Source of the DNA: Sodiomyces alkalinus F11
Lineage: Eukaryota; Ascomycota; Sordariomycetes; Glomerellales; Plectosphaerellaceae
Length of the DNA: 64,000 bases
Direction: 5' to 3'
Assembly: GCF_003711515.1 (NCBI RefSeq)
Contig: NW_021167093.1
Location: forward strand, 608,643-672,642
In this document: one piece after another, positions 17,505-52,440 of the stretch
How positions within the stretch are numbered: the stretch's first letter is position 1
How the letters are laid out: every line of letters begins with the position of its first letter
Notes under the pieces: model-generated
What the model saw: the letters and a program-made list of their open reading frames with translations, nothing else
The model's database searches: none
What the model was told of the DNA's origin: nothing
Made by a program: the position numbers and the translations under genes

Positions 17505-17583
17505 TATTATTATTATTTTTAATATTATTCCGCTATCCTATTTAGTCTATAAAAAACGCCTATTAACTACAGGCACGTAATAA
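17505..17583 (-). repeat. LINE-3 3'-end fragment (repeat R), internally deleted
   Basis: The reverse complement ends GGATAGCGGAATAATATT with a TAA-rich tail. The other end matches the 5' part of copy 2 at 2124-2152. The middle of the repeat is missing. It abuts the 5' LTR of element A at 17584. Confidence 0.6.
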
Positions 17584-17946
17584 TATAACCGCGTAGATAC
17601 GGCTTTAGTGTGGTGTCGGCAGCCGATTATATAACCCCCTTTTTAAGGCTGCGGGATCCACCTCCTATATATAGATTAAGGATAGGCTCTAGATATCCCT
17701 ATCAAGGGACGATTATTTAATTATTATCCTCGTTTATAATTACTTATTTCACGTTTAAGGTATCTTTCTAGTTTAATGTATATTACCCTAATTAGAATAG
17801 TGACTACCGATTTACTTTTTCGCTAAAGGTTATAGTAGTATTAGTTATATTTTAGTTATCTATCGTGGTTTTACTAGACTAACCTCTTTATCTAATCTTT
17901 ATCTGAACGATTTAGTACTACTATATCTTTATCTAGTTATAATATA
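17584..17946 (+). repeat. 5' LTR of element A
   Basis: 363 bp, aligning end to end with 39916-40280. It starts TATAACCGCG (TG altered to TA) and ends TTATAATATA (CA altered to TA). Nearly every CpA/TpG is lost, more than in the 3' LTR. Confidence 0.85.
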
Positions 17947-18464: not shown

Positions 18465-18678
18465 TGTGAACGACTAGTTATAGGTCGTGGCACTAAGTAA
18501 GGTCGTAATAATAGATTATCTATAACTAAGGAAGGAAGAAAAAAAACGAGAAAAGTCTATAGCGCTAGGCTAGCTATAAGGTAGCGATAACTTAGCGATA
18601 TAGGTCCGTTAACTAAGCGCATATTTAGGAAGATCCGGAGTATAGCCGGATCCTCTATATCGGGGTTAACCTGTAATA
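18465..18678 (-). repeat. 3' LTR of element B
   Basis: 214 bp, matching 25473-25686. Most differences are CpA/TpG-to-TpA changes, for example TGTGAACGAC here against TATAAATAAC in the other LTR. Confidence 0.9.
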
Positions 18679-19257
18679 TTATCCCCCCACTCTCCCTCCG
18701 GGGGTTACGTGACCGTGTATTACCGTTATAGTTTAGCTCCCCTTTACGTTGCGGTGATAAAGGAATAGTCGTGTCCCTTTATCCTACCTCGCCCTTACCT
18801 TAATATTAAAGAAATCTTAGGTAGCCTATTAACCTTTATTTATATACCCGAAATAGTAATATAGGCCACCCTTATATAAATACTTCCGTAGATATATCGG
18901 CCCCGTTTTCCTTATAGGCCCTCTTTTCCTTTATTCCCCTCCTTACCTTTAATAATAATAATAATAGTAATAGCGGTTATATATATACTTATTCTTCCTT
19001 ATAGCGACGATTCCTTTAATATCGCCTATCCTTAGATAATAATTATAATACTCGGTTAGTTTAAGAGTTCCCTATCTAAGGTAAGGCGTCTCTCGCTCGC
19101 GATCTTTTTATTAGGAACTCTTCGCTCACTTATATCGTTTTTATAGATAGCGCTAGCCCCTAGTAATAATAGGGGTAATAATAGTAATAAGCGTACCGCT
19201 AATAACGATATAGGTATAATGCTTTTACGTCTTAAGGCGATACTAACCGTATGATAG

Positions 19258-20412
19258 TTCGCGTTAACGCCCACGCCGCCGCCTAAGCAGACGAAATCGG
19301 CGGGTAGTCGGCCTCCTAAATACCCTCCCGGTAATATTCGTGCTAAGCTATACCTCCCTTATACGCGCGATATCGCTAATAAGAAGTATAAGCGCCTTTA
19401 TCATAGCTAGATTAATCAGGGGAAGAAATACTACGTGTGCTTTACGAAGATATACCGGTATACTCCTCTCCTAGCGTACCTTAAAGGCCACGCATAGAGG
19501 TTATTTAAGACGGTTACCCTTATTAGCGACGATAATAAGAACGCCCCTATAAGACTTCCTCCCCCTTAAGAGGTCGCGATAGTATCGCTAACTCTTCTCC
19601 TAGGAGTAGGAACCGTATCTTAACGCTTACGCCGCGTTCTAGGATACCCTTATAGCTAGGGAAGCGATAACAGCGATATTACCTATAGCTATATATCCCG
19701 CGGAGGCTCCTGGTATAGTAATCGCGCTAGCCTTTTCTCCTCCCTAAAAGGTCTACGAAATAGTAGCACCGTAATTAGCCTTATTACCTTTTCCTAAGGT
19801 TATTAATAAGGTAGCTAAACTAGCCTTATTTCCTCCGGTAATAAAGGTCGCTAATAAGGTGGTTACGCTAGTCTTTTGTCCTTCTTTAGAGGTTATAAAA
19901 AAGATAGTATCGGGACTAAACGTATCGCCTTTAAAGGAGGTTATTATTAGGGCAGAATAGCTAGGCTTATCTCCTCCTATAAGGTTATAGGTAAGGTAGT
20001 AGTTTCGGGCCTAATCCCTCCTAATATCGTAGCGGAAAAAAACGCCTATCCTATTACTCCTACTCCTTTATCGGGGTTAACGTTATTGGATAAAGACTTT
20101 AGACGCCTTAGTCTTATAGAGCTAAGGGAGTATACTCGGTTATTTAGGGAGATACTTATACTTAGTCGCGCTAATATTATAATCTCCGAATTCTAATAAT
20201 ACGCGGAGTATAGACGGGCTTTTACGTTTACGGGTATAGCTATCGCTAGCGCGGTCGTAATCCCTAATAACGGCGATAATAAAGATAATAATAAGATTAA
20301 GGAGACGGACTCTATCCTATAACGGGGTAATAAGGGTAAGACTTTTACGGAAGTCGATAATCCCGAGGATAGCGATTTTAAGGCCGAGAATATTAATCTA
20401 GGCTTATATTAA
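19258..20412 (+). pseudogene. Possible antisense frame between pol and LTR of element B
   Basis: Plus-strand frame with TAA/TAG but no TGA over about 385 codons, opposite to gag-pol of its element. The N-part is Pro/Lys-rich. Around 19381-19490 there is a Cys/His-containing stretch (YYVCFTKIYRYTPLL) in which several Tyr codons could have been His or Cys before RIP, so a zinc finger is possible. Near 20101-20200 a Leu/Arg/Glu-rich stretch could be helical. Because TGA is scarce in all frames here, an open frame is weak evidence. I do not recognise the product. Confidence 0.3.
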
Positions 20413-20449
20413 GCGTAGCTAAGGCGCGGGGCCTATCCGGCCTAAACTA

Positions 20450-23400
20450 AATCCGACTCTTACTCCTTTCTATTTATCGTGATATAATCGCTTATATATT
20501 GGTTCCTATATTATAATAGCGCGAAGGTATTTAACGGGCTATCGTTTATTACTACTAAGCCGAATTTCTATTTAAACTCGTTAAATACCCGTGTTTACGC
20601 TAATAGTTCTAGAGGTTCTTATATAGGCTTATAGTATCCTACCTATTATATTAGTACTTTACGTCTTAATGCACTACCTCGCCTCTTTATCCTCGCGTAA
20701 AGGATTTCCTTAACTTCCTATTCTCTACTATTAGTTATTTATCGAATAGGCGGTAGTTAAGGGTTATCTACTACCTATCCCGGAAAGGGGTTATCGCCCG
20801 CGCGATATAATAAGTCTACGTAGAATTAAGGATAGATTTACGATAGCACGGCGAGCTTAACTATATATAGGCTAATTACCTTTATAACTCGGTATTTACG
20901 ATAAAGCTAGCTAAGCTTTCGTGATAGTCGCGGAGTTAAACAATTAGCTAATAATAGCTAGACTAAGTCGTTAACCTTAAAACGCTTAGCCGGTATACGA
21001 TATTAGTTAGTAGACTCCTTATTTCTAAGCTATATTAACACGATCGCGGCTTAGGCAAACTCGGTTATTTTCTATAAGCGGTATAGTAGGTTATAGGCCG
21101 TTAATACTCTAGGTTCTAAAAGGGGCTCCTTAATTATCTAGATCGGATTAACGTAGTAGCTATATTCTAAGAAGAAGGGACTAAACCCCGTCGCGGAGCT
21201 CTCGCGGTTATTTAGGGCTAGTTATACTATGGGTAATAGGCGATCCTAGTTATCCTAAGCGTAATAGATAAAGGCTGATAAATAAGCTTATACTTCTTAG
21301 TTTATACGCTCTATTACTTTATCGGTTTAGGGGTAGTATACTATACTAAGCTTACGCGATATCCCTGCGAGCTTATAAAAGTACTTCTGAAACCTACTTA
21401 TCTAGTTTAAGCCTTAGTTATTAATAATCGCCCTAGGTATTCCGTAGAACCGGAAATAATAGTATAGGAACTATTCCGCGTAATCTTCGGCTTTTATTAT
21501 CTTTATCGTTTCTAATATTACCGCCTTAGTTAAACGGTCTATAATAACCTAGAGGTAGCGCGCCTTTTTCTTACCGGCTAGTAGTAGGTCCGTTATAAAA
21601 TCTATCGATAGGTCGCTCTGTATTTATTCTAGTACCGGGAGGGGGCGTAAAAGGCCTTATTTCGTATTTCTCCATATATACTCCTTTCTGTAAACGTCGT
21701 AGTTCCGGATAAATCGTCGGATATCCTTATATATCCTCGGCTAAAAAAAGCGATACGCTATTAAGGCGATAGTATTTTTATATCCAGGGTATCCTCTAAT
21801 TACTAAACCGTGAATTAACTAGACGATCCGCCCTTATGATATTAATTCTTTAATAGACCCGGGCACCTAAATTCGGTCGCGGAATAGTAATAACCTAATT
21901 GTAAAGACTAAATACTCGGCTATTTATAGCTTGAATTCTAATAATAGTAAGAACTATTATTCTTCTTTAGTAACCGTAGATAAGGCTTTTTAATATTATT
22001 TATCGGTTATAAGCGTTTTATTCTATAATCGCTATAGCTCTTAGTCCGCCTCGAAGATCGATTAACTACTATTAATATAGCGAATACTAGGTAGAATCGC
22101 AGTATCGGGAATTAATTAAATATAATAAGATTACTCCCGTTTATGTATGATATTTTAAGGCTTATCTTACTATTAACGCGAGAGGGCGTCCGTTATCGCG
22201 TTATCTTTTCCTTTCCGATACTCGAGTATAAAGTCGAATTATATAAGCTTGCTAGTCTATCGGCTTTATCGCTTAGTAAGTATTCGCTTTATTATAAAGT
22301 ATTTAAAGGCTTTATAGTCGGAGAGGACTCTAAACTACTTATAACTAATAAGCTCGGCCCGCTATATCGTTAAATAACTTATAATCGCTAGTATTTCCTT
22401 ATCGTGGATTAAGTAGTTATATTCCGCTTTATTAAGTTTATAAAAGTAGTATACGACCACGTAGCGATTTCCGTCCGCGTCTTCTTATATTAGGCTACCC
22501 CTAAGGGTAAACCCCGAGTAGTCCGTCTTAATAAATATCTTATTTACTAGGTCCTATTATCGTAGTATCGGTCTTTCTTAGAACCTTATTTTTAGCTCGT
22601 AAAAGGCCGTTTTTTCCTCGGGACCTTATTAAAAGGTATAGTCTTTCTTAGTTAATACTATTAATAGGGCTAAGATCCCCGAAAAATCCTTAATAAAGAT
22701 TCGGTAATAATTCGTAAACCTTAGGAAGCTTCGTACGCCCTTAACCGTTATAGGCGTTTCCTACTCGCGAATAGCTCGGAACTTCTTTAGGTCGTAAAAT
22801 ACGCCATTCCCCGCGGTAATTATGAATGCTAGGTACTTTACGGTCTTTACGCTAAAATGGTACTTTAACGGATTTAGGTTTAGGCTAACGTCCGCGAGTA
22901 CGCGGAGTACCTATTTTACCTTCGCCATATAGTCGGCCTAACTCTTATTAAAGTAAATTAGGATATTATTAATATAAGCGGTAATAAAGTCGTTTAGGAA
23001 GCACTATAGTATCTTATTAATATATCCCTAGAAAGTAGCGGGAGCCCTACTTAGGCCGAATAGGTAGATAAGCTATTTAAAAAGCCTAAACCGAGTTCGG
23101 AATATAGTCTTATATTTATGTCCTAAGGCTATCCTAATCTTATAGAAGGCGGCGACTATATTAAGCTTCATAAACTATTTTACTTAGCTTAGGTTTTATA
23201 GTATTTTAGCGATTAGGGGAAATAAATAATAATCTCGCTTAGTAATCGCGTTTAACGCTTAATAGTTATAATAAAATTAAAGTCCTCCGCCTAGCTTTCT
23301 TATAAAGAGGATAGGAGCCGCGGCTTCCGAACTATTAGCACGGATAAATCCCTTATCTATTAGGTTAGTAAATATTTTCCGTAATACTAAGAGTTCTTCT

Positions 23401-24250
23401 CTTAATATATTATAAAGCGGCTTGTAGGAAAGCGATAATTCCTTACCGTTACGTCCGGGTATAAGGTTTACTATATAGTCGACTCCTAATCGGTATAACG
23501 GTAATTAATTAGCCTTATCGGGCGCCAATAGGTCGCCGAATTCTTATAGTAACTCTTCGGGTATAAAGTCCTTCGGGTCTACTAGTTATTTCTTATATAA
23601 CGCTTTTTTAATATCCTTTAGGCTTACTCCCTAGATTAAGACTTCCTTACCCTTCTATTATAGTCGTCGAATAATACCCGCGAATATAGATTCTATAACT
23701 AAATAGGCGTTACGGATAGCTTATACTCTAGTAGGTTCCTTTTTGTGATAAAGTCGTATATTTAATCCGGCTACTCCGTAGTAAAGCCGTTTATCTTTAG
23801 CGTAGTATATTACGTTATTTTATTCTATTTAGGGCTTCCCGAGGAATACGTCTTAATTAAGCCCGGGTATTATATAAATGAATATCCTTTACAGGTAACC
23901 GCCGATCTTAAGGTTATAAACGGCGATCCCCGTGCTATTAATTGTCCTAATAGCTTCTAAGAAGCTATTTAGTAGTCGATTCGTTTTATGAATTAACGGT
24001 AATTAAAGTCTTTAGGTAAACTATTTACTTATAGCGGTATAGTGATTATAACTAGTATTAATAAGGGCGAGGATACGCTATTGATTTACTCTAGCTACTA
24101 TACATACCGGGTTATTACTAGTATACACTTTAAACGCCTCTTACTCCCGCTATATCGCGGCTATCGGCTTTAATGCCCGTTTTCGCATTAAAGCTACTCT
24201 TTTTCCGAGTTATCCTTATTAGTCGACTTATCCCTGCTCTTATCGCGATA
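20450..24250 (-). pseudogene. Element B pol: protease, RT, RNase H, integrase
   Basis: Reverse transcription and integration enzymes of a Gypsy-type element. On the minus strand the RT active site reads FITAYINNILIY at about 22985-22955 (YIDD before RIP, both Asp now Asn). RNase H lies near 22400-22100. The integrase C-terminal domain shows RFKVNDLV near 20965 and KYRVIKVI near 20890. A chromodomain was sought at 20650-20450 but not convincingly seen. Broken by many RIP stops. Confidence 0.8.
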
Positions 24251-25450
24251 TTTCGTGCGAGTCTCCTTAACTTTCTAGACTGTATCTTAGTTTTCCTTTA
24301 GCTTTTTATAATTCCGCGCGATATACCCTTTCTTATTATAGTCATAGTATATCCGAGTCTTTTACTTCGCTTTCCTATCGCTAACACGGTTTACTCCGCC
24401 TATCTTCGTATCGCTATTAGTATCCTTCTTCGCAGTTATATAGTCTTAAGCTTGTTATCGTAGTTTTATTCGAATTAGTAGCCTTTAAGTTTCCTAGCAA
24501 TCTCTTACACGCCGTTAACCTATATAGTATAGTAGTTAATAGGGATTCGGGTGGAGATAAGTTTATCCCTAAGTCGTAAAGTAATTACTCCTTTAAGAAA
24601 TAAAATCTATACGGTGGCTTCCTATTCGGTACTACCTATAAGGGCGATCTGTTTTTTAAAATAGGGTGGGAAGGCGGTAAACGACTTATCGGTTCGTTAA
24701 CAAATTATACGTAAGGCTTAGGCGGCACGTGATTATTCTATAGGGTTAAGGTAGGTACGATCGAGATACGCTCTAAAGTTATTAGGGTTTATAAGCTTAC
24801 CCGGCCTATCGCTTTTATAAAAGGCTAATATAACCTATTATACTTCGGGCCCTAGGTAATTATAGATCGTGTACTAAGCTTATCTATTATTCTAGAATAA
24901 GTCGCTATCGATTATAAGCTTCTACTATATCCTATAGGCCTTCGCGCTATAGTATACTCGCTTCCCTAAGAACTTTACTGGGCTATCAATAGTCTTACGG
25001 GGTATCGCCGTTAAGGTCGGGGCGACTATTATTATTATCGGCTATAGCGTAGGCGATAGAACCGGTAATAGGGTAGACTTTACTAGTATAAGGATTATCG
25101 GGGTCTATAAAGGAGCCGGAATATTTAGGTTAAGCCCTATTAGGTTCTACGGGGCGGGCGATCCTAGGAGCCGGGCTATAAGCTATTCGACTAACTAGCG
25201 TTATTACTTATCGGCTTCTTCTCTCGCGCGTTATCGGTCTATAAACTAGCGTATTTCCGAGTAATATTCTTATATCGGAGCGAACCTTAAGTTAATATCG
25301 GTATATTATTTATAGAGAGGGCCTAGCCTTACGTTTAGGGCTTAGTTATTTTCTTCAAACCGTTATTTCGTCTACTCTATAACCTATTTAATTCTAATAG
25401 GTTATTAGGCGGTAGCGTTAGGATCCTAATCTATTGCTAGCGTAACGCGT
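24250..25450 (-). pseudogene. Element B gag with CCHC zinc knuckle
   Basis: Capsid/nucleocapsid protein. Near 24350-24305 the minus strand reads YYDYNKKGYIARNYKKLK. Each Tyr at the expected knuckle positions is one RIP change from Cys (TGC/TGT) or His (CAT), so it restores to a CX2CX4HX4C knuckle. The upstream capsid region is not recognisable in detail. Confidence 0.7.
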
Positions 25451-25472
25451 GGGTATCGCTAAGTTCTAGATA

Positions 25473-25686
25473 TATAAATAACTGGTTATAGGTCGTGGCA
25501 CTAAGTGAGGTCGTAATAATAGATTATCTAGAACTAAGGAAGGAAGAAGAAAAAGAAGAAAAGTCTATAGCGCTAGGCTAGCTATAAGGTAGCGATAACT
25601 TAGCGATATAAGTCCGTTAACTAAGCGCGTAGTCAGGAAGATCCGGAGTATAGCCGGATCCTCTATATCGGGGTCAACCCGTAATA
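25473..25686 (-). repeat. 5' LTR of element B
   Basis: Reads on the minus strand from 25686, starting TATTACGGGTTGACC. Matches the LTR at 18465-18678 over its whole length and is followed on the plus strand by the right copy of GATAG at 25687-25691. Confidence 0.9.
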
Positions 25687-25929
25687 GATAGTCTAGTAAA
25701 GACCTTTACGGACCCTATAAGTAAGTTATAATACTTATTCGTAAGACTTAGCGCGTAATATTACTAATATTAATATCCGTGAGTATAGCCCCTTTACTAA
25801 TAGGTAACCTCCTAATTATAGGGGGCCTTTTCCTTTAAGGTGAGTAAGAAAAGCTAGACCCCGAAAATAAATATCACGGAGCGAAATCTAAGACCGCTAC
25901 TACCCTTTTATTAAAGACTTTATTACTCT

Positions 25930-27603
25930 TATTAAGATAAGATAATATATATAATAACCTGGCTAGTATCTAGAACACCTAGAGGATCTTCTCGCTAAAC
26001 GATTAGTTCGAAGAACCTTTCCCTAAATACCCTAAACGCCCTAACCCTATTATTATTATTCGCCTACCCCCTCGCACTTATACCTAAAATACTATAGTTA
26101 CTTAGATTTAGTATCGCGAGCCTACCCCTATTATCGTCGTTAGCGACTTCGACGATAAGGCTCTCTTACCGGCTATTCCCCCTATTTTTACGCCCGCTAC
26201 TTCTACTACCCCTAATTAGGGGAACTATAATATCGGGGCTACGGCTTTACCTCTGCCCGCTTCTAGGCCGACTACTATTACGATATCTGCCCCTAAAACT
26301 ACCCCTAGTACCGCTACTACTCCTAAATCGACTATTACCCCTACTTAGTCTATCTTTACTACCTAGCCTACCCCTAAACGTTAATAGCCCTATACTACCA
26401 CCGAAGACCTAATTAAGCTACTATAGGCCCTAATAAGCCGTGACCGAGAGAGTACTATCGCCGAGGTCGTTAGAGTACTACCCCCTACCACTACCACGTT
26501 AAAAGCACTCCTAAATCCCCTTACTACTAAAGCTCCCCGCTTTAGTAGTAAGTCCCTCTCTACGTTCCTTCAATAGTACGATAACTATACTAAGCTTAAC
26601 CGCCTTAGTAAAGCCGATAAGATCACCTACGTTAATCTATACACGGATATAGCTATTCGTCCTACTATTAAACGCGTAGTTAGAGAGGTTTAAACCGCTA
26701 AAGGTAGTTAGTCTAATCTAGTCGAGAAGCTTATTAAAGAGTACTCTTATCTGGATCCTAACTACTAACTTAACTTCTCTTATGAGGTTTATTAGCTTCG
26801 GGTAAAATATAAGACGTATGAGATTAATAGCGTTTATTAAGTTAAGGACTTACTATAGTAAATCACTATCTAGAAAGCTAAGGCCGAGCGGGTTTAAGGC
26901 ACTTTTATTAAGGACTCCGAGCTTCATAGTATCGTCCTTACTATTCTATATAGAGATATCTATATATTTATCGCTAATAAGCTTAAGATTCGAGGAATTA
27001 ATCTAAGAAAGATAGTTAAAAGCTATAGGCTACTTTCGGACCTATTATGCCAGTAGTCTACGGATATCTAGGAAGTAAAGGATAAGCCTATAGATAAGGA
27101 CGTTATACTAGGTATAGCTAAGTCTTATTAGCCTAATAGTACCGCTTTCTAGCCTATAATCTTAAGGCGGCCTACTATAGTCTAGCAGTTTATAGCCTCT
27201 TAATCGGATATAGATAAGCTCGCTAACCTCCTCGAGAAGTATACTATTTCCCTTATCTATAATAGACCTAAAGGCGTTAGGGGTATTACTACCTAAGTGC
27301 TCGCTCTATCTAAGAGGATAGGCACGGAAAAGGTCTAAGCCCTCCTCGCTATAAAGTCTAACCTAAAGAACGCCTTTTATACCGTCCTTAAGTATCCCCG
27401 TTAGCCTACGATAACTGCTTTAGTGCACTTCGCCGCCCCTAATCAGGCTAATAGTGCCGCTTACTAGCCTAATAACGCCTAGTACACTAAGGAGATCTAC
27501 TATAGAGGACCGCGCCCTAGATACAATAATAACCGATATAATAATAACCGCCTAACCTAATAACACGATAACCGCCTAGGATAACAAGAAGCTTAGAATA
27601 ACG
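25930..27603 (+). pseudogene. Element A gag, N-terminal part
   Basis: Continuous frame, broken only by TAA/TAG, from the end of the leader. A Pro/Thr-rich N-terminal region (to about 26400) is followed by a helical-looking capsid-like region (about 26560-27100). An Asn/Arg/Tyr-rich tail at 27500-27600 takes the place of a clear zinc knuckle. The frame continues after the truncated LINE-2 at 28627, which shows the LINE split a coding region. Identification as gag is by position in the element. Confidence 0.65.
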
Positions 27604-27612
27604 GCTAGCCAC

Positions 27613-28617
27613 TTAGGTAATAGTCCTTCTCTAATTCTTAAGGGGAAACCGATAATAGATAAAAACCCCTACGCTCTTATTATATAAGCAGTTCTATTAT
27701 ACGTGGCCGCTACGGTATCGCTCCGCGGCCCTGTTTTTATCGCTATTCGAACCCCGGATCTTACCTCTAGACTAATAGCTAATAGGGGTCGGCTAGTTAG
27801 TTTAAGAAGTGCTATATCGGTCGTACGCGCCCTTAATACGCTATCGCCACGGTCCCTCGCCGCCGTCCTTTCCTTTATTCCGGATCTAACGAGGCTATTC
27901 TCCCCTCGCCGCGGTACCCTTTATACCCTCCCTCCCTTCTATAAGGGGGGGGCGCGCCTACCCCCCCCTTACTCCTTTCTTTATATATTATTTATTCTAA
28001 AACCTCCTTTATATACCTGTTATTTATAATAGCCCTTATTTAGTTATATACCTCCCTTACTCGCGCTGCGTAGGCTCTCCGGGGTAGGCGCTATAGTATA
28101 GGCCGGGCGTAGCTTCCGTTCCCTAGAAGGCGTGGTGACTCGTAGAGCTAATCCGCCGCTCCCTTATCTAATAACCCTCCCTCTTTTCCTCTCTTTTCCT
28201 CCTTTCCTCTTTTCCTTCTTTAAGCTATCGTTCTTAAGGTAAGTTTTACGTAGTCGGTATAATATAAGTACGGCCCTAGAACTCCCGTGCAGGATCCCCG
28301 GTACCGTTCGGCTATATAGTAGGGGATCTAATAGGGTCCCGGGTCGCGCTGTCCTCCCGCCGCCCCCGCTCCGCTCCCGTAACGCCCGCCTCGGTCTAAC
28401 TCTCCTACCCTTTTAGATACCCAGTAATAAGACCTCTATCACCAAAGGGGGAGCCGGTGCCAGCGCTTATAAGGGTAAAGGGCCGGTTACCCCTTAGCCT
28501 TTTACTATAAATTCCCCGCTTTATTATCGTCGCGCCCGCTTTACACCCCCGTTTTATATTCTAACCCGGTATAGTCCGCTATTACCCCTACTATCCGCTC
28601 TTCCTTATACTATATTA
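27613..28617 (-). mobile_element. 5'-truncated LINE-2 copy inside element A
   Basis: 1,005 bp matching 4134-4797 joined to 11293-about 11645, so only the 3' end of LINE-2. It is flanked by the 9-bp repeat GCTAGCCAC (27604-27612 and 28618-28626). Removing the insert and one 9-mer restores the gag frame. Open frames inside, such as 27703-28029, are non-coding LINE 3' UTR. Confidence 0.88.
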
Positions 28618-28626
28618 GCTAGCCAC

Positions 28627-29650
28627 TAGGCTTTATAGCCGATTTAAGGACCTCGTAAACCTCTATATTAAGACCTTCTAGCCCGTTACCCTCCCCTATA
28701 AGACTAAAAAGACTAATAGGCTTATAATTAAGTATATAGTTAAGCAGGTATAGAAGTAGTAGGCCGGTTAGAGTAGTTAGGCTAACTAAGCCACTTAAGT
28801 CTTAAGAGTTACTAAGGTTATGGGATCTATTAATTTTATTACTACTAGAGTATATACTATGTTTATATCTCGATATACTTTAACTAACCCCTAAAACCCT
28901 CTTCGTACTACTAGAAGCGAGAGAATTAGTAAACCCACGCTAAAAGTAGCTAGTTCCCCTAATTAGGCTATTTAATAGACCCTATCGACTCCGGAAAGCT
29001 CCATAAAGAGTTATAGAAATAGTTAATAACGCCGATATAGAAGACGGACTAGTCCCTGATTTAATAGCCACTATATCTAGACCCGCTATTACCTTAACTA
29101 TTACCCGGCCTACCTCGCGAGCCTTAGCGTAGAAAGATACCCTTAATTTATTTAACTAAGAGGCTATTATATAAAAGGTCCGCGAGAAGAGCCTAAAGTA
29201 CCTTGTAGAAATAGAGGTTAAGGTTCCCATAGTTTACCTCCTCTTTACTAATAGAGCTGTCCTCGCGGACTACAAGGAGATACTAAAGTCGATCAGTAAC
29301 TAAGTAAAGCCTTATAAAGTTATCCGCTTAACCCCTAAAGAGGCCTTTTTTATAGACTCCTTACCCCTTAGACCCGAACGCCCTATATAGTTTACGAATA
29401 CCACGACTATAGCCCCTACGCTTAACGGTGCCTTATCTATTATGCCTGCCCCGATAATTAATAAACTAAAGCCTCCTACTATTTACGCTAAGTATATAAC
29501 GATACGGGTTAGCCTAACTAAGCGAATAGCTAAGATCTACCCTATAAAGGACCGTTTTAACGTAGTTATTAATATAAGAGTTATCTTTAATACTATTCGA
29601 CTAGACCTTAGTGGAAAAGCTAGGGTTATAAGGCCGTATAGGAAAAAGTA
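28627..29650 (+). pseudogene. Element A gag-pol continuation, gag C-terminus to protease linker
   Basis: Continues the frame of 25930-27603. It includes an unbroken stretch from 29442 to 29650 (69 codons, ending RVIRPYRKK) that is part of this polyprotein rather than a separate gene. Low complexity in places. I see no motif that fixes the exact gag/protease border. Confidence 0.5.
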
Positions 29651-32600
29651 ATATTATAATTCAAGGGATTAACGACATAGATAGGGTAAACTATACGGGA
29701 TATCTAGAAAAGCACCTTTAGGTCGAGGACTAGTATAGGAAGGTCTATTTTATCGTAATCGAGGGAATAAGGCCCGAGATACTTCTTAGCCTGCTATTAT
29801 TACTTAATAGTCACGCCTTTTTTACCTATAAAGATAAATAAATCGATATAGACTTTATTTACGGGGATACCCGTATTATTATCCCTATTACTAGCAGGGA
29901 ATAAGTCGATAACCGCCCTTATAAATAAAGCTAGCCTAAGTTTAAAGAGGAGGAGAGGCACTAAAAAGAGGAGGATTTAATTAATCTAAGTATCGGATAG
30001 TAAAGGGAGGATAGCGTCCTTTATAGTTAGTCTAGGGCCGCTACTTTAATATCGAGTAATAATAGGATTAATGGTTCGCCCGATTAGGGGGCGGAAAAGG
30101 CGGAGGAGATAAGAGAGAGGAGGATGGAGGAGAAGGAGGAGGAGAAAAAGAAAAGCGATAACGATAGTTTCTTTAATTTAGATAATAAGAATATTACTAC
30201 TTCAGTCGCCTTCCTATTTACGGAGGAGGTAAAGCCCTTAACGTAAAGAATATATATAGCCTTGAGGGCGATACCACGAAATTAGGGCCGAGGATATAAG
30301 AGGTGTATCGCAGAGGATCCCTATATAATAACTACGACTATATAATAATAACTAATTTATACTAACCACTTATCTTTTTCGACTTTTCTATACTACTATT
30401 AGCCTAATCACGCTAATAGCCTTTCGGTCTTATATTTTCGGAAGGACCAGATAATATAGGATAATTCCTAGATAAGAGCGCTTAAGGCTTTAAAGAAAGA
30501 GGAGGATAGTATTACTAGTATAGCCACGGTTATAACGAAGAAGCCATAATAGCCTATGAGGAGGAAGCCCTAAGATCTTATTAAAGAAGCGCATTATTCC
30601 CCTGATCTCGGAGGCGTCTTTACTATATAGAAGCCTAAGGCTTTTAAAGTTTACCCTTTTAACGATATTCTAACTAATAGAAGTGTCCTTAATAGAGACC
30701 CCTATTAAAAGAAGAATATCCTCGAAGAAATTAAAGAGGAAGACTAAGAACTAGAAGATAAGCGGTTTATTAGCCTAATTATACCGAAGTTTTCTAAAAT
30801 TATATCTTATTCGCGCCTTATACCCGAAAGACTCAACACTATTCTAAAGACCGTTAACCACTTAACCCCTAAGGAATAGGAGCTCCTAATAAAGGTCCTC
30901 CTAAACCGCGAGGTAGCTATTATATAGGATTAGACTAAGTACGGCCGCTTTAACGAACGGGTAGCCCCTTTATAAAAGATTTAGGCGGTTCCCTATAAGG
31001 CGTAGCAGGCGAAGGGGATCCTTATCCTTAAAGCTTTAGAGTCTATAATCGTGTAGATAATAAAGGACCGCCTTAAGAAAGGTATAATAAAGGAAAGCTA
31101 TATAGCCTACTATAACCCCTAATTCCCCCTTAAGAAGAAGGACGGTACTATACGGCTTATTAACTTAGCCACTAAGATTAATATAGTAACCCTATAAGAT
31201 ACCTTTATACCGTCTAAGGCCGACGAGTTCTCCGAGGATTTTACTATATATAAGCTTATATCCCTTTTAGACCTTTTCTCTGGTTATAATTAGGTTACCC
31301 TTAACGAGGAGTCTTAAGATCTAACTACCTTTACGACTATTATTAGACTCTTTAGGATATATACCCTTCCCTAAGGGGCCACTAATTTAGTAGTCTAGTT
31401 TATACGTATTATAAACCGTATCCTTTACGACCTTATCCCCTAATACTATAGACCCTTTGTTAACGATATTATAGTAAAAGGACTAATAACTACCTATAAC
31501 GATACCCTAATCAGACCTAGAATTCGCCGTTTTATAGCCGAGTACATCGCTAATATCGATAGAGTCCTTCTTAACGTGGAGCTAGCTAAAGGTATTATCG
31601 TAGGTATTAAAAGCTAGTAGTATTAGAAAGTAGCTACTATTATAGGCTATATCTACGGTACTAATAGTCGTTCCCTTAAGTAGGCTAAGATTATAAAGGT
31701 CCAAGAGTAGGAAAGGTATAATACGGTCTTTAATATTCGTTCATTCCTCGGTCTTATTACCTTTTACCGAGTTTAGGTTTATAAGTTCGCTAATATTACT
31801 AAACCCTAACCGACCTATTATGGAAGAATACTGCCTTTAAGTAGAATGAGCCTTAATAACACGCTATAGACGCCTTTAAGAAAGTCCTAACTATTACCCC
31901 GGTCCTGATTACTATTTAGTACGGCGAAGGCATAGGAGTTATCTATGTTATCGTCGACGCTAGTATAGATAGATAGGGTAGAATCCACGGTTAGTACGTT
32001 AAGGATAAAAGAGCTATAGTATAATATAAAAGCGGTCGTTAGTCTCCTATAAAGAGGGTCTATGATATTAGTAAGCTAGAACTAAGGGGAGCCTTAAAGA
32101 CCCTTCGGCGCCTACGTAACTATCTTTATAGGGTTTACTTTATCCTTAAGACTAATACCTAAGCCCTCTTATCCTAGTTGAAAGGATCTACTACTAACCT
32201 CCTTAATGCCCTAATTACCCGATAGCTCGCCTAGATCCGGCTTTTCAACTTCGACGTTAAGTATATTAAAGGATCTAAGAATATTATAGCCGATAGACTC
32301 TCTTGGATACTAGGAATACCCTTTAATTAGACTAATAATAATACCGAAGGAGACCTAGACGACTTCGTGGATAATAGAATCTTCTTTATAGAAGCCGAGG
32401 AGTAGTTTAACGACCCTACCCTAGCTAATAATATCCTCGATAAGGACCTTATTTAGAGTTAGTTTTCCCGATAAATAACCACCTTTTTAACGAACTTTCG
32501 GGTACTTAGAGACATAGATCCTAAGGAAGCCCTTAGAGTTAAAGATAGGGCTACCCGTGTATTCCTTAAGAATAGACTACTATAGACCCGAGTAACTAAG

Positions 32601-34983: not shown

Positions 34984-36880
34984 AAAAGAAAAACGTAATA
35001 CTATAACGGCGACGGCGATAATAATAATAAAAACCAGAAAATCCGGGGGTTCCCTAGCCTTATTAGCCTAATTAAGCGATTACCGGCCGCTACCCATGAA
35101 TCTTATTCTTCTTATAAGGGCTTTATCAGTAGATAGGCCCGTGGAGTCTACTCGTGTAGAGTAGAAAACGGATTATTATAAAGAAAAGAAAAAGAGAAGA
35201 AGATAAGCCACGACGAAGACCTCCTTTTATACCTATATTTCCCCTAATCTTATTACCCTACCTTACTTTTTTATATAATAGCTCTTTCTTCCCCTAAGTA
35301 CGCGGGCGACTTAGGCTTAGAAGCTTATTTCGTTATAATTCACTACCCACTAGTTAATCTAGCCCTAACTACTTTATTTAGCTATAGCTACGCCTCTATT
35401 CCCCTAATCACCGTAAAAGATACCTATTCTCCCCTTTTTTCACTCCTGAACCGGTCCTTTCTTATAGTCCTTATATTCGGGGACGTACACCTTAATCTCC
35501 TTACGCTAGATATAAGCCCTTACGGGAAAAGAGATCCGATAATACTTAATAGTCTCCCCCTTCTCATACTAAGCTTTATCCTTAACCCTCTAGTAGTGGC
35601 TACCTAGTTTAGTCTAATACCGATATATTAAAGCTAGAATTATAGCTGGAATACTATCTCGAGCTAGGAGATCTTATCCTCCCGAAGTATCGCGTTACTA
35701 ATAAGCCACCTATTAATAAATAGCCTTTATATTAATGATATAAACGCCACGCCGAGGGGACTATAAAGGTCGGTGGCTATCGTTATAAATCGACTAAGGT
35801 AGCACTATACTCTACTTAAGAGAAGGATTAAGGTGGCTAATACTAGGATACTTATCGTCTAGCTAAGAGACCTCCTAATTACCCTATTAAAACTATCTTC
35901 GAAGGGTATCGTCACGATACGTATAGACGGACTTATAAAATTAGTAGTGAGTATAGTCCGGGAACTCCTTACTCCCCTAAATTAACACGTACTCGAAAAA
36001 GGGGTATAGAATCTTATTATTAATCCGATTAGTTATAGCTATCTAATATTCCTTATAGTATTAGCAGGGAACCTTATTAACGGTGCCGTATACCTAGATT
36101 AAAAGTGCCCTAGTAGTATAAGGCCGCGAGACGATCTTTATAAGATACTCCCTCTAAGGGCTAGCTATATCCTTCGCTATAAAGACCCGATAACGGAAGA
36201 GAGGCGAGCCGTTACTAGCCTTTATCCTTATAAACAGACTAACCTCGATATCTCTAAGATTAAGAAGAGTATCCTAAACCCGTCTAGCGACTACCGCCTT
36301 ACTTTCTCCGGGGATTAGCAATTATAGGAAGTCTAGCTCGATATATAATAAGCCACCCTTACTACCCACCTTATATTAGCCGAGGTAGGAGTTTACCTAT
36401 AAATTATTAGCCTCTTTATAACCTAATTAGGGTATCCTATATATAGAATTAATAAAACCCTACTACTATATCTACTAGGGTTACCCTAAAGGAGTATTCC
36501 TTATAAGCTTTAAGAGATAAACGAGTTATAGGCTAGAACTAAGGAGTCGGCTTAATAGACTACTAACGGCCGACTACCTTCTTTCTTTTATAAGACTCGG
36601 TCTTATTAAGTATACTAATTAGCCGTTTAGTCGCTATTATTACTATTATTAGTAATTATAAGTATAGGTAATAGATATATTCGTATCTGCCTTAATACTA
36701 TAGTAGGAAAACAAGAAGAAGAGGAGGAGGGATACCGCTAAAAGGCTCGCCTTTTATACTTAAAGGATCGAGCGTTTAAGGGAGGTTATAAGCCTCGTCG
36801 CTACTATAAATTATAAAGACGACTATTTAGTTAAAGTAGTTATAAAGGGGCCTTTATCTGCTACGGCTTAAGGGAGGGGT
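34984..36880 (+). pseudogene. Unrecognised long frame of element A (orfX)
   Basis: About 630 codons broken only by TAA/TAG, between TGA at 34981 and TGA at 36880, in the same direction as gag-pol. It starts with a Lys/Arg/Gln-rich stretch. The middle (35460-36600) looks protein-like, with alternating hydrophobic and charged residues. Segments such as GIVTIRIDGLIKLVVSIV near 35920 and RPRDDLYKILPLRASYIL near 36120 can be seen. I recognise no domain. Its end runs into the 291-bp tandem repeat, so the last ~150 bases may not be coding. It sits where envelope-like or captured genes lie in other LTR elements. Depletion of TGA weakens the open-frame argument. Confidence 0.4.
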
Positions 36881-37312
36881 GATTTACTGTTTCCCCTTTT
36901 AGATCCCTTATTCCTAAGTCACGGCTACGCCTATAACTAAATAACGCAGGAGCTATTTCGTCTAATCTTTTCGACTAATTAGAGCCCGGATTTTAACGTC
37001 TTTTTTCTAATCGGGAACTTAGATACCGTTAGAAAGCTCGCCTTTTATACTCGAAGGATTAAGCGATTAAGGGAGGTTATAAGCCTTATTACTACTATGA
37101 ATTATAAAGATAACTATTCAGTTAAAGCAGTTATAAAGGGGCCTTTACCTGCTACGGCTTAAGGGAGGGGTAATTCACTATTTCCCCTTTTAGATCCTTT
37201 ATTCCTAAGTCATAGCTACGCCTATAACTAAATAACGCAGGAGCCATTTCGTCTAATCTTTTCGACTAATCAGAGCCCGGATTTTAACATCTTTTTCCTA
37301 ATCAGGAACTTT
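36731..37312 (+). repeat. Two tandem copies of a 291-bp unit in element A
   Basis: Units 36731-37021 and 37022-37312, each starting GATACCG followed by AAAGGCTCGCC or GAAAGCTCGCC. They are near-identical apart from RIP-type changes. The unit contains GGAGGTTATAAGCC and GGAACTT blocks and no gene. It separates orfX from the protease gene. It may be a regulatory or packaging region, but that is a guess. Confidence 0.85.
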
Positions 37313-37764
37313 CCCGCCGGGTAAAAAAAGTCATTATTATAATGACTAAGGGACGCTTCCTTTAACTAACCGAAAAAGACTCTTTTATAGGTAGTAGCTA
37401 AATAGTAACGCCTCCTATAAAGGAACCCTTAAGGAGAAGACTATCACGGAAGAAGGCACTTTCGAGCTTATTAGAGGAGGATAAATATCCCTCGACCTTA
37501 AGTTCTAAGGATCTCTTTTCCTCTCTCTTCTACTCCTTAGTTTTTGACTAGGCCTTCGCTCTCGGATATTACCCGTAACTACTAACCTCTATTTTATATA
37601 TAATAACTTTTCCTTTTTCTTTTTAACTTTCTTTAACGCCTCTAGACCCAATTAGGCTAACCTGCCGTAGTTTATACTTATATTAGGTCTTATTTCCCCT
37701 TAGTATCCCTTTTTTTTCCCTTACTCCCCTTTTTTCTCTCGCGTTAAACGTATAATCCCTTAAT
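37313..37764 (+). other. Spacer before the Ulp1-like gene
   Basis: T- and pyrimidine-rich in parts (37610-37740) with no recognisable gene. It could be the promoter or 5' leader of the downstream protease gene if that gene had its own transcript. Confidence 0.35.
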
Positions 37765-39894
37765 ATAACTAACTATTAGGCTACTACTCTAGTAGAAGAT
37801 TTACTTAAGCGGCACGTTTACCCTAAGGCACGCGTAGTCGTTAAAACTTATACTAGGAGCCGTATAGAGTACGTCCTTAAGAAAAGTATATAGGCTTTCC
37901 CTTTAACTAGCCTCCCCTACCGCCTATTTAACGTATCCGATAATAACCCCTTTTTTTTTAGGTTTACCGTAAATAGCGAGGAGGATTAATAAGCTATTTA
38001 ATAACTCTTAGGAATAATAGAAGGAGAGTATATAGGCGGGGAAGTCGTAGATAAAATAACCCTATTAACCCCCCTAGTAAAGATTTATAGGGATAGTATT
38101 ATTTCTACCCGTATAGCTTTACTAGCTATATAAAGGGTGTATAGTAACCTTTTTAAGGGTAAGTAGTTAGAAAAGTCCACTATAGAAGACCTGATTAGGA
38201 TAATAATTACTAGATAGATCGGAGATACTAGGCCTAAGGCCTAGATTAATAACGTCGACTTATAGGGCTATAACGCTAAGAAGAGGAAGTTTAACTACTT
38301 AGACGTAAGCGAGAGGGACCTCTTTAGGATTATAACGTCCCGGCTAATTCCTTTTATATACCACGTTAAAGGTAACCACTTTATTAGCCTAATCTTAGAT
38401 TAGGAGACTTAGGTTATATACGTATACGATAATATATAGCACGACGGAGGAGCTAAGAAGCGTTTATTAGAAAGCTTCTAAGGAGTTATAAGTTAGCTAT
38501 AGTATATTAGAGCCCCTAAAAAGGGTATAGATAGCCTGGTTAGGAAATTCTATATCGTCCTAGGCTCTTAGTAAGAGGATAAGTATTCGTGTAGTCTATT
38601 TATTAGTGAATAGATCCGTTACGTTATTTAGGAGGGGTACTTATTCCCTGCCTTATCCCGACTATACCGCCTATAAGATAGCCGCTACTACATTAATAAC
38701 GCTACTAGCTATACTAAGTATATTAGATATAGCTAGTTAAGCTATATAGGCGAACTCTTCGGCTTCGGCCACCGACCTAAGCGAGCTCTTAGATAGTCTA
38801 CCCTATTCCCTAACCCCGCTCCTACCACCGCTCCCGTTATAACCCCCTCCTATAATCCGCCTAAGATAACTGGTTTTAAGTCTATTAATAAGAAGTGGAC
38901 GCCCGTTACCCCGCTAAAAGGACTAAAAACGCCTAAGGCACCTAAGACCTCTTAAGCGACTAAGTAGAAGTCTCTTTCCCCTAATTAGGGACTAACTAAA
39001 GTCCCGGCGTTCGAAAATAATAATAGCGGCGCGTTCCTAGAGCTAGGCAACCTTAAGCTTACCACCCCTAAGTATAAGAAGGTTACTAAGGAAAGCACGC
39101 CCCTAGCTACTAAACCCTCTCCCATTATAATACCGTCTAAGTCTCCGGAGGACTAAGCCCCTATTAGTTCCCCTAATCCGAAAAAGGTTAAGCTAAAGGA
39201 GTAGTCGAAGCCGTAGATATAATAACCGTAGCCCGCCCTTATTAATATTAGTTCGGCTACTAGCTACTACACGTAGAAGGGAGAGGACCCTATTAATTTT
39301 ACTATAGGAACCGATATATAGAGTAAGTAGGAGAAGGATTAGGCGTACTAAGGTCGTGGTCTAGAGATATCTCGTAGCCTATTATTCTATAGGCTAATTA
39401 AGATAAGGAACGTACTATTTAGACTAAGTAATTATAGCCGGGAGGATTAGGTCTAGTTATTTAATCACCCTTATAGAGCCGCTTTATAGGATACTGCTAC
39501 TAATAATAATGAGTATCTTCCGCTATCGCGAGTAGTAGAGTAAGGAGGCTAGCGCCGTTATAATACCGCTATCGAATAGGAGGCAGATAAGGCTACCGCT
39601 AATTAAAAGACTAGGAAGGCTAATAAGCCTAACTATATAGTCGGAGGAAGGACTTTACGAAAGCGTAAATAAAGGTATATATAAAGGATTAGATAAGCGG
39701 CGTCTTAAGGGTACGGTTAGTAAAGATAGTAAGGGAACGGTATATAAGGAGGAACTAGAACTAAGAGGATCCCTAATTAGGTATACGTAGAGGATAGGGT
39801 GATTAGAGAAATAAGGGTACGCGATAGCTCTTTACTTAGTTTATTTACTTATATCTACTTATTTTTAGGAGTTATCTACGCTATAAGGGCGTAA
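37765..39894 (+). pseudogene. Ulp1/C48-type cysteine protease gene carried by element A
   Basis: One frame of 710 codons with no TGA; its stops are TAA/TAG of the CAA/CAG (RIP) type, apart from the terminal TAA. The probable start is ATA at 37765 (an ATG hit by RIP). The protease core (about 38300-38650) has His at 38377 (NHFISLIL), Asp at 38428 (VYDN), a Gln pair at 38569-38574 now TAG TAA, and Cys at 38590 followed by Ser (Gly before a TG-to-TA change). Spacings are H to D 17 residues, Q to C 6 and D to C 54. Yeast Ulp1 has H514, D531, Q574, C580, that is 17, 6 and 49. Ulp1 enzymes cleave the SUMO C-terminus and remove SUMO from targets. The following ~380 residues are Pro/Lys/Ser-rich, then Gln-rich. 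The last ~20 (LLSLFTYIYLFLGVIYAIRA) are hydrophobic and could be a tail anchor. The stop lies 21 bp before the 3' LTR. A viral-type C48 relative is the alternative. Confidence 0.75.
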
Positions 39895-39915
39895 ACAAGC
39901 TAATTAGGGCCGTAT

Positions 39916-40280
39916 TATAACCGCGTAGATACGGCGTTAGTATATTATCGGCAGCCCGTTATATAACCCCCCCTTTTTAAGGCTACGGGATCCGCCTCCC
40001 ACTTATATATTAAGGATAGGCTCTAGATATCCCTATCAACGGACGATTATTTAATTATTATCCTCTTGTACAATTACTTATTCTACGATTAAGGTATCTT
40101 TCCAGTTTAACTTATATTACCCTGATTAGAATAATAACTACCGATCTACTTCTTCGGTAAAGGTTATAGCGGTGTTAGTGATATTTTGGTTATGTATCGT
40201 GGTTTTGCTGGACTAACCTCTTTATCTGATCTTTGTCTTGACGATCTGGTGCCACTATATCTTTATCCAGTTATAATATA
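39916..40280 (+). repeat. 3' LTR of element A
   Basis: 365 bp, matching 17584-17946. Its distal third (about 40160-40270) keeps many TpG and CpA sites that are TpA in the 5' LTR, for example TGATCTTTGTCTTGACGATC. A purine-rich AATTAGGG before it may be the polypurine tract. Confidence 0.85.
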
Positions 40281-51528: not shown

Positions 51529-52440
51529 ATGACGCACCGAAGAGGGCCGTGGACACAACAAGAAGACGCCTGTCTGATGCGACTAGTCGGCGATCCGGGC
51601 CCTTTGAACTGGGTCCGCATCTCGAATACATTGGGCACGCGGACTCCCAAGCAGTGCAGGGAACGCTATCACCAGAATCTCAAACCATCGTTAAATCACG
51701 AGCCGATAACCCCCGAAGAGGGCAGGCAAATCGAAATGCTCGTCAACGCCATTGGTAAGAGGTGGGCCGAGATTGCACGTAAACTCAATGGGCGGAGCGA
51801 CAACGCCGTGAAGAATTGGTGGAACGGCAATCAGAACCGCAGAAGGCGACATGATCGGAGAAGAGCCCATCATGCAACATATGGCTTTAAATATGAGAAC
51901 AGCTCATATTCTCATTGCAGCTCTCTCCAGGGGTCCTTGTTCCCCCCTAGTCCCATCTCGAATAGGCTCCCGTATCCGAACCACCGCAACTCATCCCCAA
52001 ATCATCTGTCCATCCTCGGCAATGCATACGCCGGATATCACTGCGTTTCGAATCTACCATCCCCCTCTTCAACGGCCTCACCAAGGAGTGATATACTAGA
52101 CGTCGACCCGACATGTCTTTCTGATTCGGGGTCATGCTACACAACATCCTCGCATGAAATCTATATGCGTGTTTCACCGCCAGTTCAACTGCCTCCCCTT
52201 CGAAACGTTGCCACTTCGGATTCCGTACCACGCTCTCTTCCGGGTGTTGGCTCATTACTCCATTCCAGTGGCCACCCGACGGAGACCGTTGGCAGTCGTC
52301 AGCCACCTACTCCCAGCAACCCTTTTCTCCCCCTGGATAATCAGTTTGTATCTGAGTCTTCGCAGTTCTCGGGTGCCAGTTTTCATGCGTCTGGGAACAG
52401 GGACGCGAGGATGGCTGTTCAACAGTTGGTGAACCAATGA
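51529..52440 (+). CDS. flbD-like: R2R3 Myb-type transcription factor, FlbD-like
   Basis: Nuclear DNA-binding regulator, 303 residues, single exon. The first Myb repeat (about residues 4-54) has W8, W28 and Y47 in the tryptophan positions, with GPW and NWVRIS. The recognition-helix region reads RTPKQCRERYHQNLKPSL. The second repeat (about 57-107) has W79 and W97-W98 and the very conserved RSDNAVKNWWNG, then a basic run RRRR. This matches the Aspergillus FlbD / Neurospora Rca-1 group, which controls conidiation. The remaining ~195 residues are Ser/Pro-rich and disordered, with no domain, as is usual. No in-frame break, no intron needed, normal codon use. It stands alone between a Copia element and a LINE tail, so any neighbour relation is lost. 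A species-specific FlbD paralogue is possible instead of the orthologue. Confidence 0.9.
   Translation: MTHRRGPWTQQEDACLMRLVGDPGPLNWVRISNTLGTRTPKQCRERYHQNLKPSLNHEPITPEEGRQIEMLVNAIGKRWAEIARKLNGRSDNAVKNWWNGNQNRRRRHDRRRAHHATYGFKYENSSYSHCSSLQGSLFPPSPISNRLPYPNHRNSSPNHLSILGNAYAGYHCVSNLPSPSSTASPRSDILDVDPTCLSDSGSCYTTSSHEIYMRVSPPVQLPPLRNVATSDSVPRSLPGVGSLLHSSGHPTETVGSRQPPTPSNPFLPLDNQFVSESSQFSGASFHASGNRDARMAVQQLVNQ

What the first reader, a model, noticed from the sequence alone, without database searches (positions are those of the whole stretch)
37765..39894. Ulp1/C48-like protease gene carried by a giant Gypsy-type element
The sequence shows a 710-codon frame between pol and the 3' LTR, with His 38377, Asp 38428, Gln 38572 and Cys 38590 all in one frame. 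H-to-D (17) and Q-to-C (6) spacings equal those of yeast Ulp1, and D-to-C is 54 against 49. Established knowledge: C48 proteases process and remove SUMO, and Ulp1-like genes are known as cargo in plant Mutator-type DNA transposons. I do not recall one placed as a separate gene inside a fungal LTR element. Inference: the element could have used it to strip SUMO from silencing or repair proteins, or to process its own polyprotein. RIP makes this copy inactive.
Basis: partly seen in the sequence, partly recalled or inferred. Interest (0 to 1): 0.82.

Follow-up and report, generated by a model that had tools for sequence, protein, structure and literature searches.

The report
Protease gene in dead fungal retrotransposons
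A family of long-dead jumping genes in a soda-lake fungus carried an extra gene for a distant relative of the enzymes that remove the protein tag SUMO, and that gene exists in two very different versions on an otherwise near-identical element, which hints that the element used it against its host.

Summary
Window 37765-39894 is the remnant of a separate third gene (ORF3) between pol and the 3' LTR of a roughly 14.5-kb Ty3/Gypsy-type retrotransposon of Sodiomyces alkalinus F11. His38377, Asp38428 and Cys38590 are there; the "Gln" at 38572 is a TAA stop in this copy. ORF3 is a family gene: 27 near-full-length copies of the window's type (A) and 25 of a second type (B), every listed match with RIP-type stops. 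A profile of 38 copies matches fungal C48 proteases (91% probability, P 9e-7; far above 200 column shuffles) with His, Asp, Gln slot and Cys in register. Pfam C48 stays below its cut-off (best E 0.0027, 3 of 39 copies), so this is a divergent C48-like domain. New here: A and B share one gag-pol backbone (0.8-3.1% transversions in five copies, no split by type), yet ORF3 residues 1-330 differ by about 23.5%. A 4.3-kb block from the end of pol into the ORF3 C-terminus has been exchanged or replaced. Most likely ORF3 encoded a SUMO/Ubl protease acting on host silencing factors; the substrate is inference. I found no C48 gene reported in an LTR retrotransposon in the library searched.

The parts
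17581..17946 (+). 5' LTR (ends approximate)
   Evidence: 86.7% identical to 39913-40280; 15 transversions and 32 transitions in 366 aligned bases
18473..25686 (.). later nested insertion with 206-bp terminal repeats, not part of the element
   Evidence: 18473-18678 and 25481-25686 are 94% identical; other copies run straight across
25687..27613 (+). gag-side region (gag by position only, no Pfam match)
   Evidence: shared with copies L45, L47, L51, L53 at about 85% DNA identity; no gag family
31243..31473 (+). reverse transcriptase
   Evidence: PF00078, weak: E 0.07 in the window, 0.0026 in copy L051
31944..32219 (+). RNase H
   Evidence: PF17917 E 2.2e-5 in the window; PF17919 E 1.4e-8 in copy L054
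32646..32780 (+). integrase zinc-binding domain (H2C2)
   Evidence: PF17921 E 0.11 in the window, 1.4e-9 in L046, 7.3e-8 in L052
35257..39514 (+). block that differs between type A and type B elements
   Evidence: DNA matching to B copies stops at 35257 and resumes at 39514 (L52) or 39577 (L54), with only short weak matches between
37765..39894 (+). ORF3, RIPed third gene
   Evidence: 82 matches in the genome; third-codon-position transversions highest; gene start marked by a pyrimidine-rich leader in A copies
38212..38754 (+). C48-like protease region of ORF3 (residues 150-330)
   Evidence: profile-profile match with catalytic slots in register
39913..40280 (+). 3' LTR (ends approximate)
   Evidence: 18 bases after the ORF3 stop

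Best explanation
ORF3 is the third gene of a Ty3/Gypsy-type LTR retrotransposon family and encoded a multidomain protein with a divergent C48-like (Ulp1-type) cysteine protease domain, a Pro/Thr/Lys-rich linker and a conserved C-terminal region. Shown here: the gene, its place, its family-wide presence, the C48-like relationship with the catalytic slots in register, past coding constraint, RIP stops in every listed match, and two deeply diverged versions on one gag-pol backbone. Inferred: the protein cleaved SUMO or a related ubiquitin-like tag from host proteins and so relieved silencing of the element or helped integration. Inferred: the block was exchanged by recombination between related elements, for example template switching between co-packaged RNAs, and the two versions may have differed in target.
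For: Profile of 38 copies against fungal C48 proteins: probability 91.3%, P 9.4e-7, His, Asp, Gln slot and Cys all in register; 200 column shuffles at most score 23.7 against 47.6; type A alone 45.0, other ORF3 regions 14.2 or less. Pfam C48 in 3 of 39 copies, over the same residues. Third-position excess of transversions in 12 of 12 comparisons. RNase H and integrase H2C2 over cut-off in sister copies, RT weak, in Gypsy order. Pol 4.5-7.5 kb upstream of 21 of 27 A and 19 of 25 B genes. Gag-pol and ORF3 histories disagree. In yeast, lowered SUMOylation raises Ty1 RNA (PMC8585004, abstract and one results section read), which makes the inferred role plausible.
Against: No single copy passes the Pfam cut-off, the window copy has no C48 match at all, and a genome-wide PF02902 search found no ORF3 copy. 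No relative in the PDB or the protein database. Plain profile-to-sequence search against host and other fungal C48 proteins is not significant, best E 0.065. Type B alone barely exceeds its shuffles (20.9 against 19.2) and reads Tyr at both His and Cys slots in 18 of 18 copies. Single-sequence fold failed, pLDDT 33. That A and B are compatible at the catalytic columns is weak evidence, since 120 of 181 columns are. Nothing here shows a substrate.
Confidence: 0.55

Rival explanations
1. The C48-like protein was the element's own maturation protease, cutting Gag and Pol, as related proteases of adenoviruses and Polinton-type elements are thought to do (recalled).
For: No aspartic protease family matched in the pol region of five copies, and a simple motif search found none.
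Against: A retropepsin-like stretch is visible by eye upstream of RT (judged from memory, not by a profile). A large survey notes that aspartic proteases of fungal LTR elements are often missed (PMC3248453 passages). Two very different versions on one gag-pol backbone are odd for an enzyme that must fit that backbone's cleavage sites (inference).
Confidence: 0.2
2. ORF3 has the C48-like fold but was not an active protease, at least in type B: a binding protein for ubiquitin-like tags or an env-like accessory protein.
For: Type B reads Tyr at both His and Cys slots in 18 of 18 copies; B's profile match is marginal.
Against: Tyr is the RIP product of both codons; RIP here spares CAC contexts (17-20% kept) over CAT and CAA (2-3%), and type A codons sit mostly in the spared context. 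Type A keeps His in 15 of 20 and Cys in 17 of 20 copies.
Confidence: 0.15
3. The resemblance to C48 is chance, helped by RIP-skewed composition.
For: Single-sequence and sequence-to-profile searches are weak or negative.
Against: Column shuffles that keep composition, reversal and other ORF3 regions all score as noise, and the four catalytic slots fall in register without being asked for.
Confidence: 0.06

Closest known systems
Ulp1-bearing Mutator-type and Ginger1 DNA transposons (PMC2836005, passages)
   Same: a Ulp1/C48 domain carried by a mobile element; Ginger1 integrase is Gypsy-like
   Different: DNA transposons; in Ginger1 the Ulp1 domain is fused to the transposase, not a separate gene of an LTR element
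Crypton elements of oomycetes with a C48 peptidase (PMC3212892, passages)
   Same: C48 protein in addition to the recombinase, in some as an additional protein
   Different: tyrosine-recombinase DNA elements, no reverse transcriptase; oomycetes
NeSL and Utopia non-LTR retrotransposons (PMC4640811, passages)
   Same: retrotransposons with a Ulp1-like cysteine protease
   Different: non-LTR; the protease is the N-terminal domain of the single protein; nematodes
LTR retrotransposons with an additional sense ORF between pol and 3' LTR (PMC7264820, PMC6431247, passages)
   Same: position and orientation of the extra gene, kept across the family
   Different: described as env-like or of unknown function; no C48 found in the passages seen
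env swapping in endogenous retroviruses (PMC10536682, abstract)
   Same: a 3' accessory gene exchanged by recombination
   Different: an envelope gene of vertebrate retroviruses

Membership tests
Peptidase C48 (PF02902) | match above the Pfam cut-off | tested here: not met
   3 of 39 copies at E 0.0027, 0.02, 0.19, all under 20.7 bits; none of the 4 genome-wide hits is ORF3
Peptidase C48 (PF02902) | relationship by profile-profile comparison | tested here: met
   score 47.6, shuffles at most 23.7; rests on type A
Peptidase C48 (PF02902) | His, Asp, Gln, Cys in that order | tested here: inconclusive
   in register in type A; Gln slot a stop in 36 of 39; in type B His and Cys read Tyr in 18 of 18
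Peptidase C48 (PF02902) | C48 fold | tested here: inconclusive
   single-sequence model pLDDT 33, unusable
Peptidase C48 (PF02902) | cleavage of SUMO or another ubiquitin-like protein | not testable with these tools
   bench assay needed
Ty3/Gypsy LTR retrotransposon | two LTRs | tested here: met
   17581-17946 and 39913-40280, 86.7%
Ty3/Gypsy LTR retrotransposon | pol order RT, RNase H, integrase | tested here: met
   RT weak, RNase H and integrase H2C2 over cut-off in sister copies, in that order; rve core not detected
Ty3/Gypsy LTR retrotransposon | aspartic protease in pol; target-site duplication | tested here: inconclusive
   protease suspected by eye only; flanks of the window copy give no clear duplication

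The most novel reading that the evidence does not exclude
One retrotransposon population kept two deeply diverged versions of a SUMO/Ubl-protease gene in circulation on one gag-pol backbone and exchanged them by recombination, as a specificity polymorphism in an arms race with host silencing: a fungal counterpart of env swapping, with a counter-defence protease as the swapped gene.
Probability: 0.25. Interest if true: 0.82.

Novelty: new variant of a known kind. Interest (0 to 1): 0.62.

Why it matters
C48 proteases are known cargo of several DNA transposons and of non-LTR elements, but I found none reported as a gene of an LTR retrotransposon. Yeast Ty1 is held down by SUMOylation (PMC8585004), so an LTR element with its own candidate SUMO protease would make anti-silencing by desumoylation testable. 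The two versions on one backbone are a natural record of how such a gene is exchanged and diversified.

Tried and rejected
Pfam on the window copy: no C48; genome-wide PF02902: 4 places, no ORF3 copy. PDB by profile: none; by one copy: two irrelevant capsid matches at E 2.2. Protein database with the 39-row alignment (7991 candidates scored, none at E 1 or less) and with one copy's domain (254 candidates, none at E 10 or less); words broken by RIP and the length limits make this a weak negative. Single-sequence structure: unusable, so no fold search was run. Plain profile search against 4 host and 120 other C48 sequences: best E 0.065, to a host C48 pseudogene. I first read copy L49/L50 as having a different pol; its upstream shows no similarity to the element pol even in protein, so it may simply be truncated, and I dropped the claim. 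Copies that match only the ORF3 C-terminus looked like a third type; of 21 that I looked up by eye, 20 lie in or directly beside a type B match, and C2:2567219 only near one. Alignment A1 had nine copies on the wrong strand and was replaced by A2. Conservation of the triad column by column proved weak evidence. C7:2299332-2303777 looked like two ORF3 genes in tandem; I take it, by reasoning only, as a B element end next to a truncated A copy; that A copy is still among the 21. L042 was left out of the profile crops and codon counts (38 of 39 rows used) because its frame breaks inside the domain. One search was given 80 of the 88 pol rows; the last 8, short fragments, were left out.

Papers: seen as listings; passages of PMC2836005, PMC3212892, PMC6431247, PMC6338049, PMC7264820, PMC4640811, PMC3248453, PMC10175614; abstract and section 8 of PMC8585004; abstract of PMC10536682. 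The claim that no LTR retrotransposon with C48 is in print rests on searches of an open-access library, of which 10 to 25 titles each were listed.

Full report
Setting. The window lies at C15:608643-672642 of a 43.4-Mb genome in 22 contigs. A host gene product is 100% identical, over 77% of the query, to "cysteine proteinase [Sodiomyces alkalinus F11]" on a contig of 6,539,281 bases, exactly the length of C2; the host is therefore taken as S. alkalinus F11, Sordariomycetes, Plectosphaerellaceae. The repeats are strongly RIPed: CpA and TpG at 0.13 and 0.10 of expectation in the ORF, against 1.15 and 1.06 in the one long intact ORF of the window.

Element. Repeats at 17581-17946 and 39913-40280 are 86.7% identical. 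A 7.2-kb insertion with 206-bp terminal repeats sits at 18473-25686, and the window carries about 0.8 kb extra near 27613-28603 compared with L45, L47 and L51. Without these the element is about 14.5 kb; copies L45 and L51 measure 14.3 and 14.2 kb between their outer matches. Pol shows RT (weak), RNase H and the integrase zinc-binding domain in Gypsy order; the rve core was not detected.

ORF3. The frame 37765-39894 holds 55 stops, all TAG or TAA. The genome search gave 82 matching stretches, each with in-frame stops (63 of 153 candidates scored). 27 are near-full-length at 62% identity or more: type A. A second group, at about 40% identity in the first two thirds and 63-71% in the last third, is type B; a search with a B copy gave 83 matches, 25 of them near-full-length at 72% or more. 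In type A the gene start follows a pyrimidine-rich leader that differs between copies; of 20 A copies shown, RIP has hit the start codon in 17, one keeps it, and two (L018 truncated, L020 out of register) cannot be judged (9 B copies also shown). The stop lies 18 bases before the 3' LTR match. Residues 345-500 are rich in Pro, Thr and Lys; the C-terminal 200 residues are the best conserved and match no Pfam family.

C48 test. Alone, the window copy has no Pfam C48 match; 3 of 39 copies do, at E 0.0027, 0.02 and 0.19, all below the cut-off, and a genome-wide search with PF02902 rang at 4 places, none an ORF3 copy. The profile of 38 copies (residues 100-345, X at stops) against an alignment of 4 host C48 sequences and 20 of 120 listed NEDP1-type homologues scores 47.6, probability 91.3%, P 9.4e-7, and sets His205, Asp222, the double stop at 269-270 and Cys276 on host His45, Asp62, Gln-Gln and Cys105. 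200 column shuffles reached at most 23.7, reversal 11.5. Type A alone scores 45.0 (100 shuffles at most 23.8), type B alone 20.9 (100 shuffles at most 19.2); ORF3 regions 1-150, 345-590 and 465-709 score 13.9, 14.2 and 11.8. So the relation rests on type A, and B follows through its homology to A. Plain HMMER does not see it, and the host's C48 genes are not close relatives, which speaks against a recent capture of one of them.

Catalytic columns over 39 copies: His 16, Tyr 23; Asp 20, Asn 18, Lys 1 (L040); Gln slot stop 36, Gln 2, gap 1; Cys 17, Tyr 21, Leu 1 (L042). Tyr and Asn are RIP-type products. RIP here keeps 17-20% of CAC but 2-3% of CAT and CAA. In type A the His codon and the Cys codon sit mostly in the spared context (His CAC in 15 of 20; Cys preceded by G in 18 of 20), whereas the B Cys slot is preceded by A in 17 of 18. 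The A/B asymmetry therefore needs no loss of function, but 18 of 18 B copies read Tyr at both slots, so B's activity is not shown. Compatibility of a column with one ancestral residue is common (120 of 181 columns), so triad conservation by itself is weak evidence.

Coding constraint. RIP makes only transitions, so I counted transversions by codon position. Between A and B in the protease region the rates are 0.198, 0.185, 0.296; within A 0.033, 0.031, 0.053; the third position is highest in 12 of 12 comparisons. Along the element the third position of the ORF3 frame is highest in all 7 bins of 300 bases from 37900 to 39999 and not in the next, LTR bin. Pairs are not independent; no test value is claimed.

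Two versions, one backbone. Pol lies 4.5-7.5 kb upstream on the same strand for 21 of 27 A and 19 of 25 B genes, mostly at 5.55-5.74 kb, with median identity to the window pol of 79% and 80% (given 80 of 88 pol rows; one of the 21, at C7, stands behind a B gene). In the five copies read in full (window, L45, L47 of type A; L51, L53 of type B) transversions in gag-pol are 0.8-3.1% with no split by type; the closest pair in all three segments is an A and a B copy (L47-L51: 0.8, 0.8, 1.2%; L45-L47, A-A: 1.6, 1.4, 1.7%; L51-L53, B-B: 2.3, 2.5, 2.3%). ORF3 residues 1-330 differ by 23.2-23.8% between types and 1.7-4.9% within; residues 511-709 by 10-12% between types. Strong DNA matching to B stops at 35257 and resumes at 39514 or 39577, with short weak matches between, so the block is homologous but long diverged. 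This is an exchange or replacement of a 4.3-kb block on a shared element. Whether it happened once or often was not tested: too few pol sequences could be read.

Mechanism. Shown: a C48-like gene, conserved, exchanged, now dead in every listed match. Inferred: SUMO or other Ubl cleavage from host proteins. Support is by analogy: lowered SUMOylation raises Ty1 RNA in yeast (PMC8585004, abstract and section 8), and Ulp1 domains recur in transposons with proposed roles in host ubiquitin and SUMO pathways (PMC2836005, passages). The rival that it matured Gag-Pol stays open because no aspartic protease was confirmed.

Novelty. C48 or Ulp1 cargo is known in Mutator-type, Ginger1 and Crypton DNA elements and in NeSL and Utopia non-LTR elements. 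I found no LTR retrotransposon with it in searches. I rate it a new variant of a known kind.

Noticed in passing
36731-37311: A 290-bp tandem duplication between pol and ORF3; Tandem Repeats Finder finds it in the window copy and not in copies L046 or L052.
   Followed up: partly
18473-25686: A 7.2-kb nested element with 206-bp terminal repeats, 94% identical, inside the family A element.
   Followed up: no
35257-37764: A long stretch between pol and ORF3 that is diverged between types A and B; no coding frame could be settled.
   Followed up: partly
L044:1500-2800, minus strand (C11 of the host): A C48 gene remnant with frame-breaking stops in the host, Pfam C48 E 1.5e-6, the best though weak sequence match to the ORF3 domain.
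   Followed up: partly
L045-L054 and window, ORF3 copies: RIP context preference: CAC is spared about six-fold over CAT and CAA.
   Followed up: yes
29007-31674: The same change of reading frame between two pol segments near 29608 in the window, L47 and L51; programmed frameshift or shared damage not decided.
   Followed up: no
C15:466945, C4:2542648, C3:2670709, C8:1687791 of the host: Copies matching the ORF3 C-terminus without a type B match; not examined for a third version.
   Followed up: no
51529-52440: The one long intact, unRIPed ORF of the window, a Myb-like DNA-binding protein.
   Followed up: no
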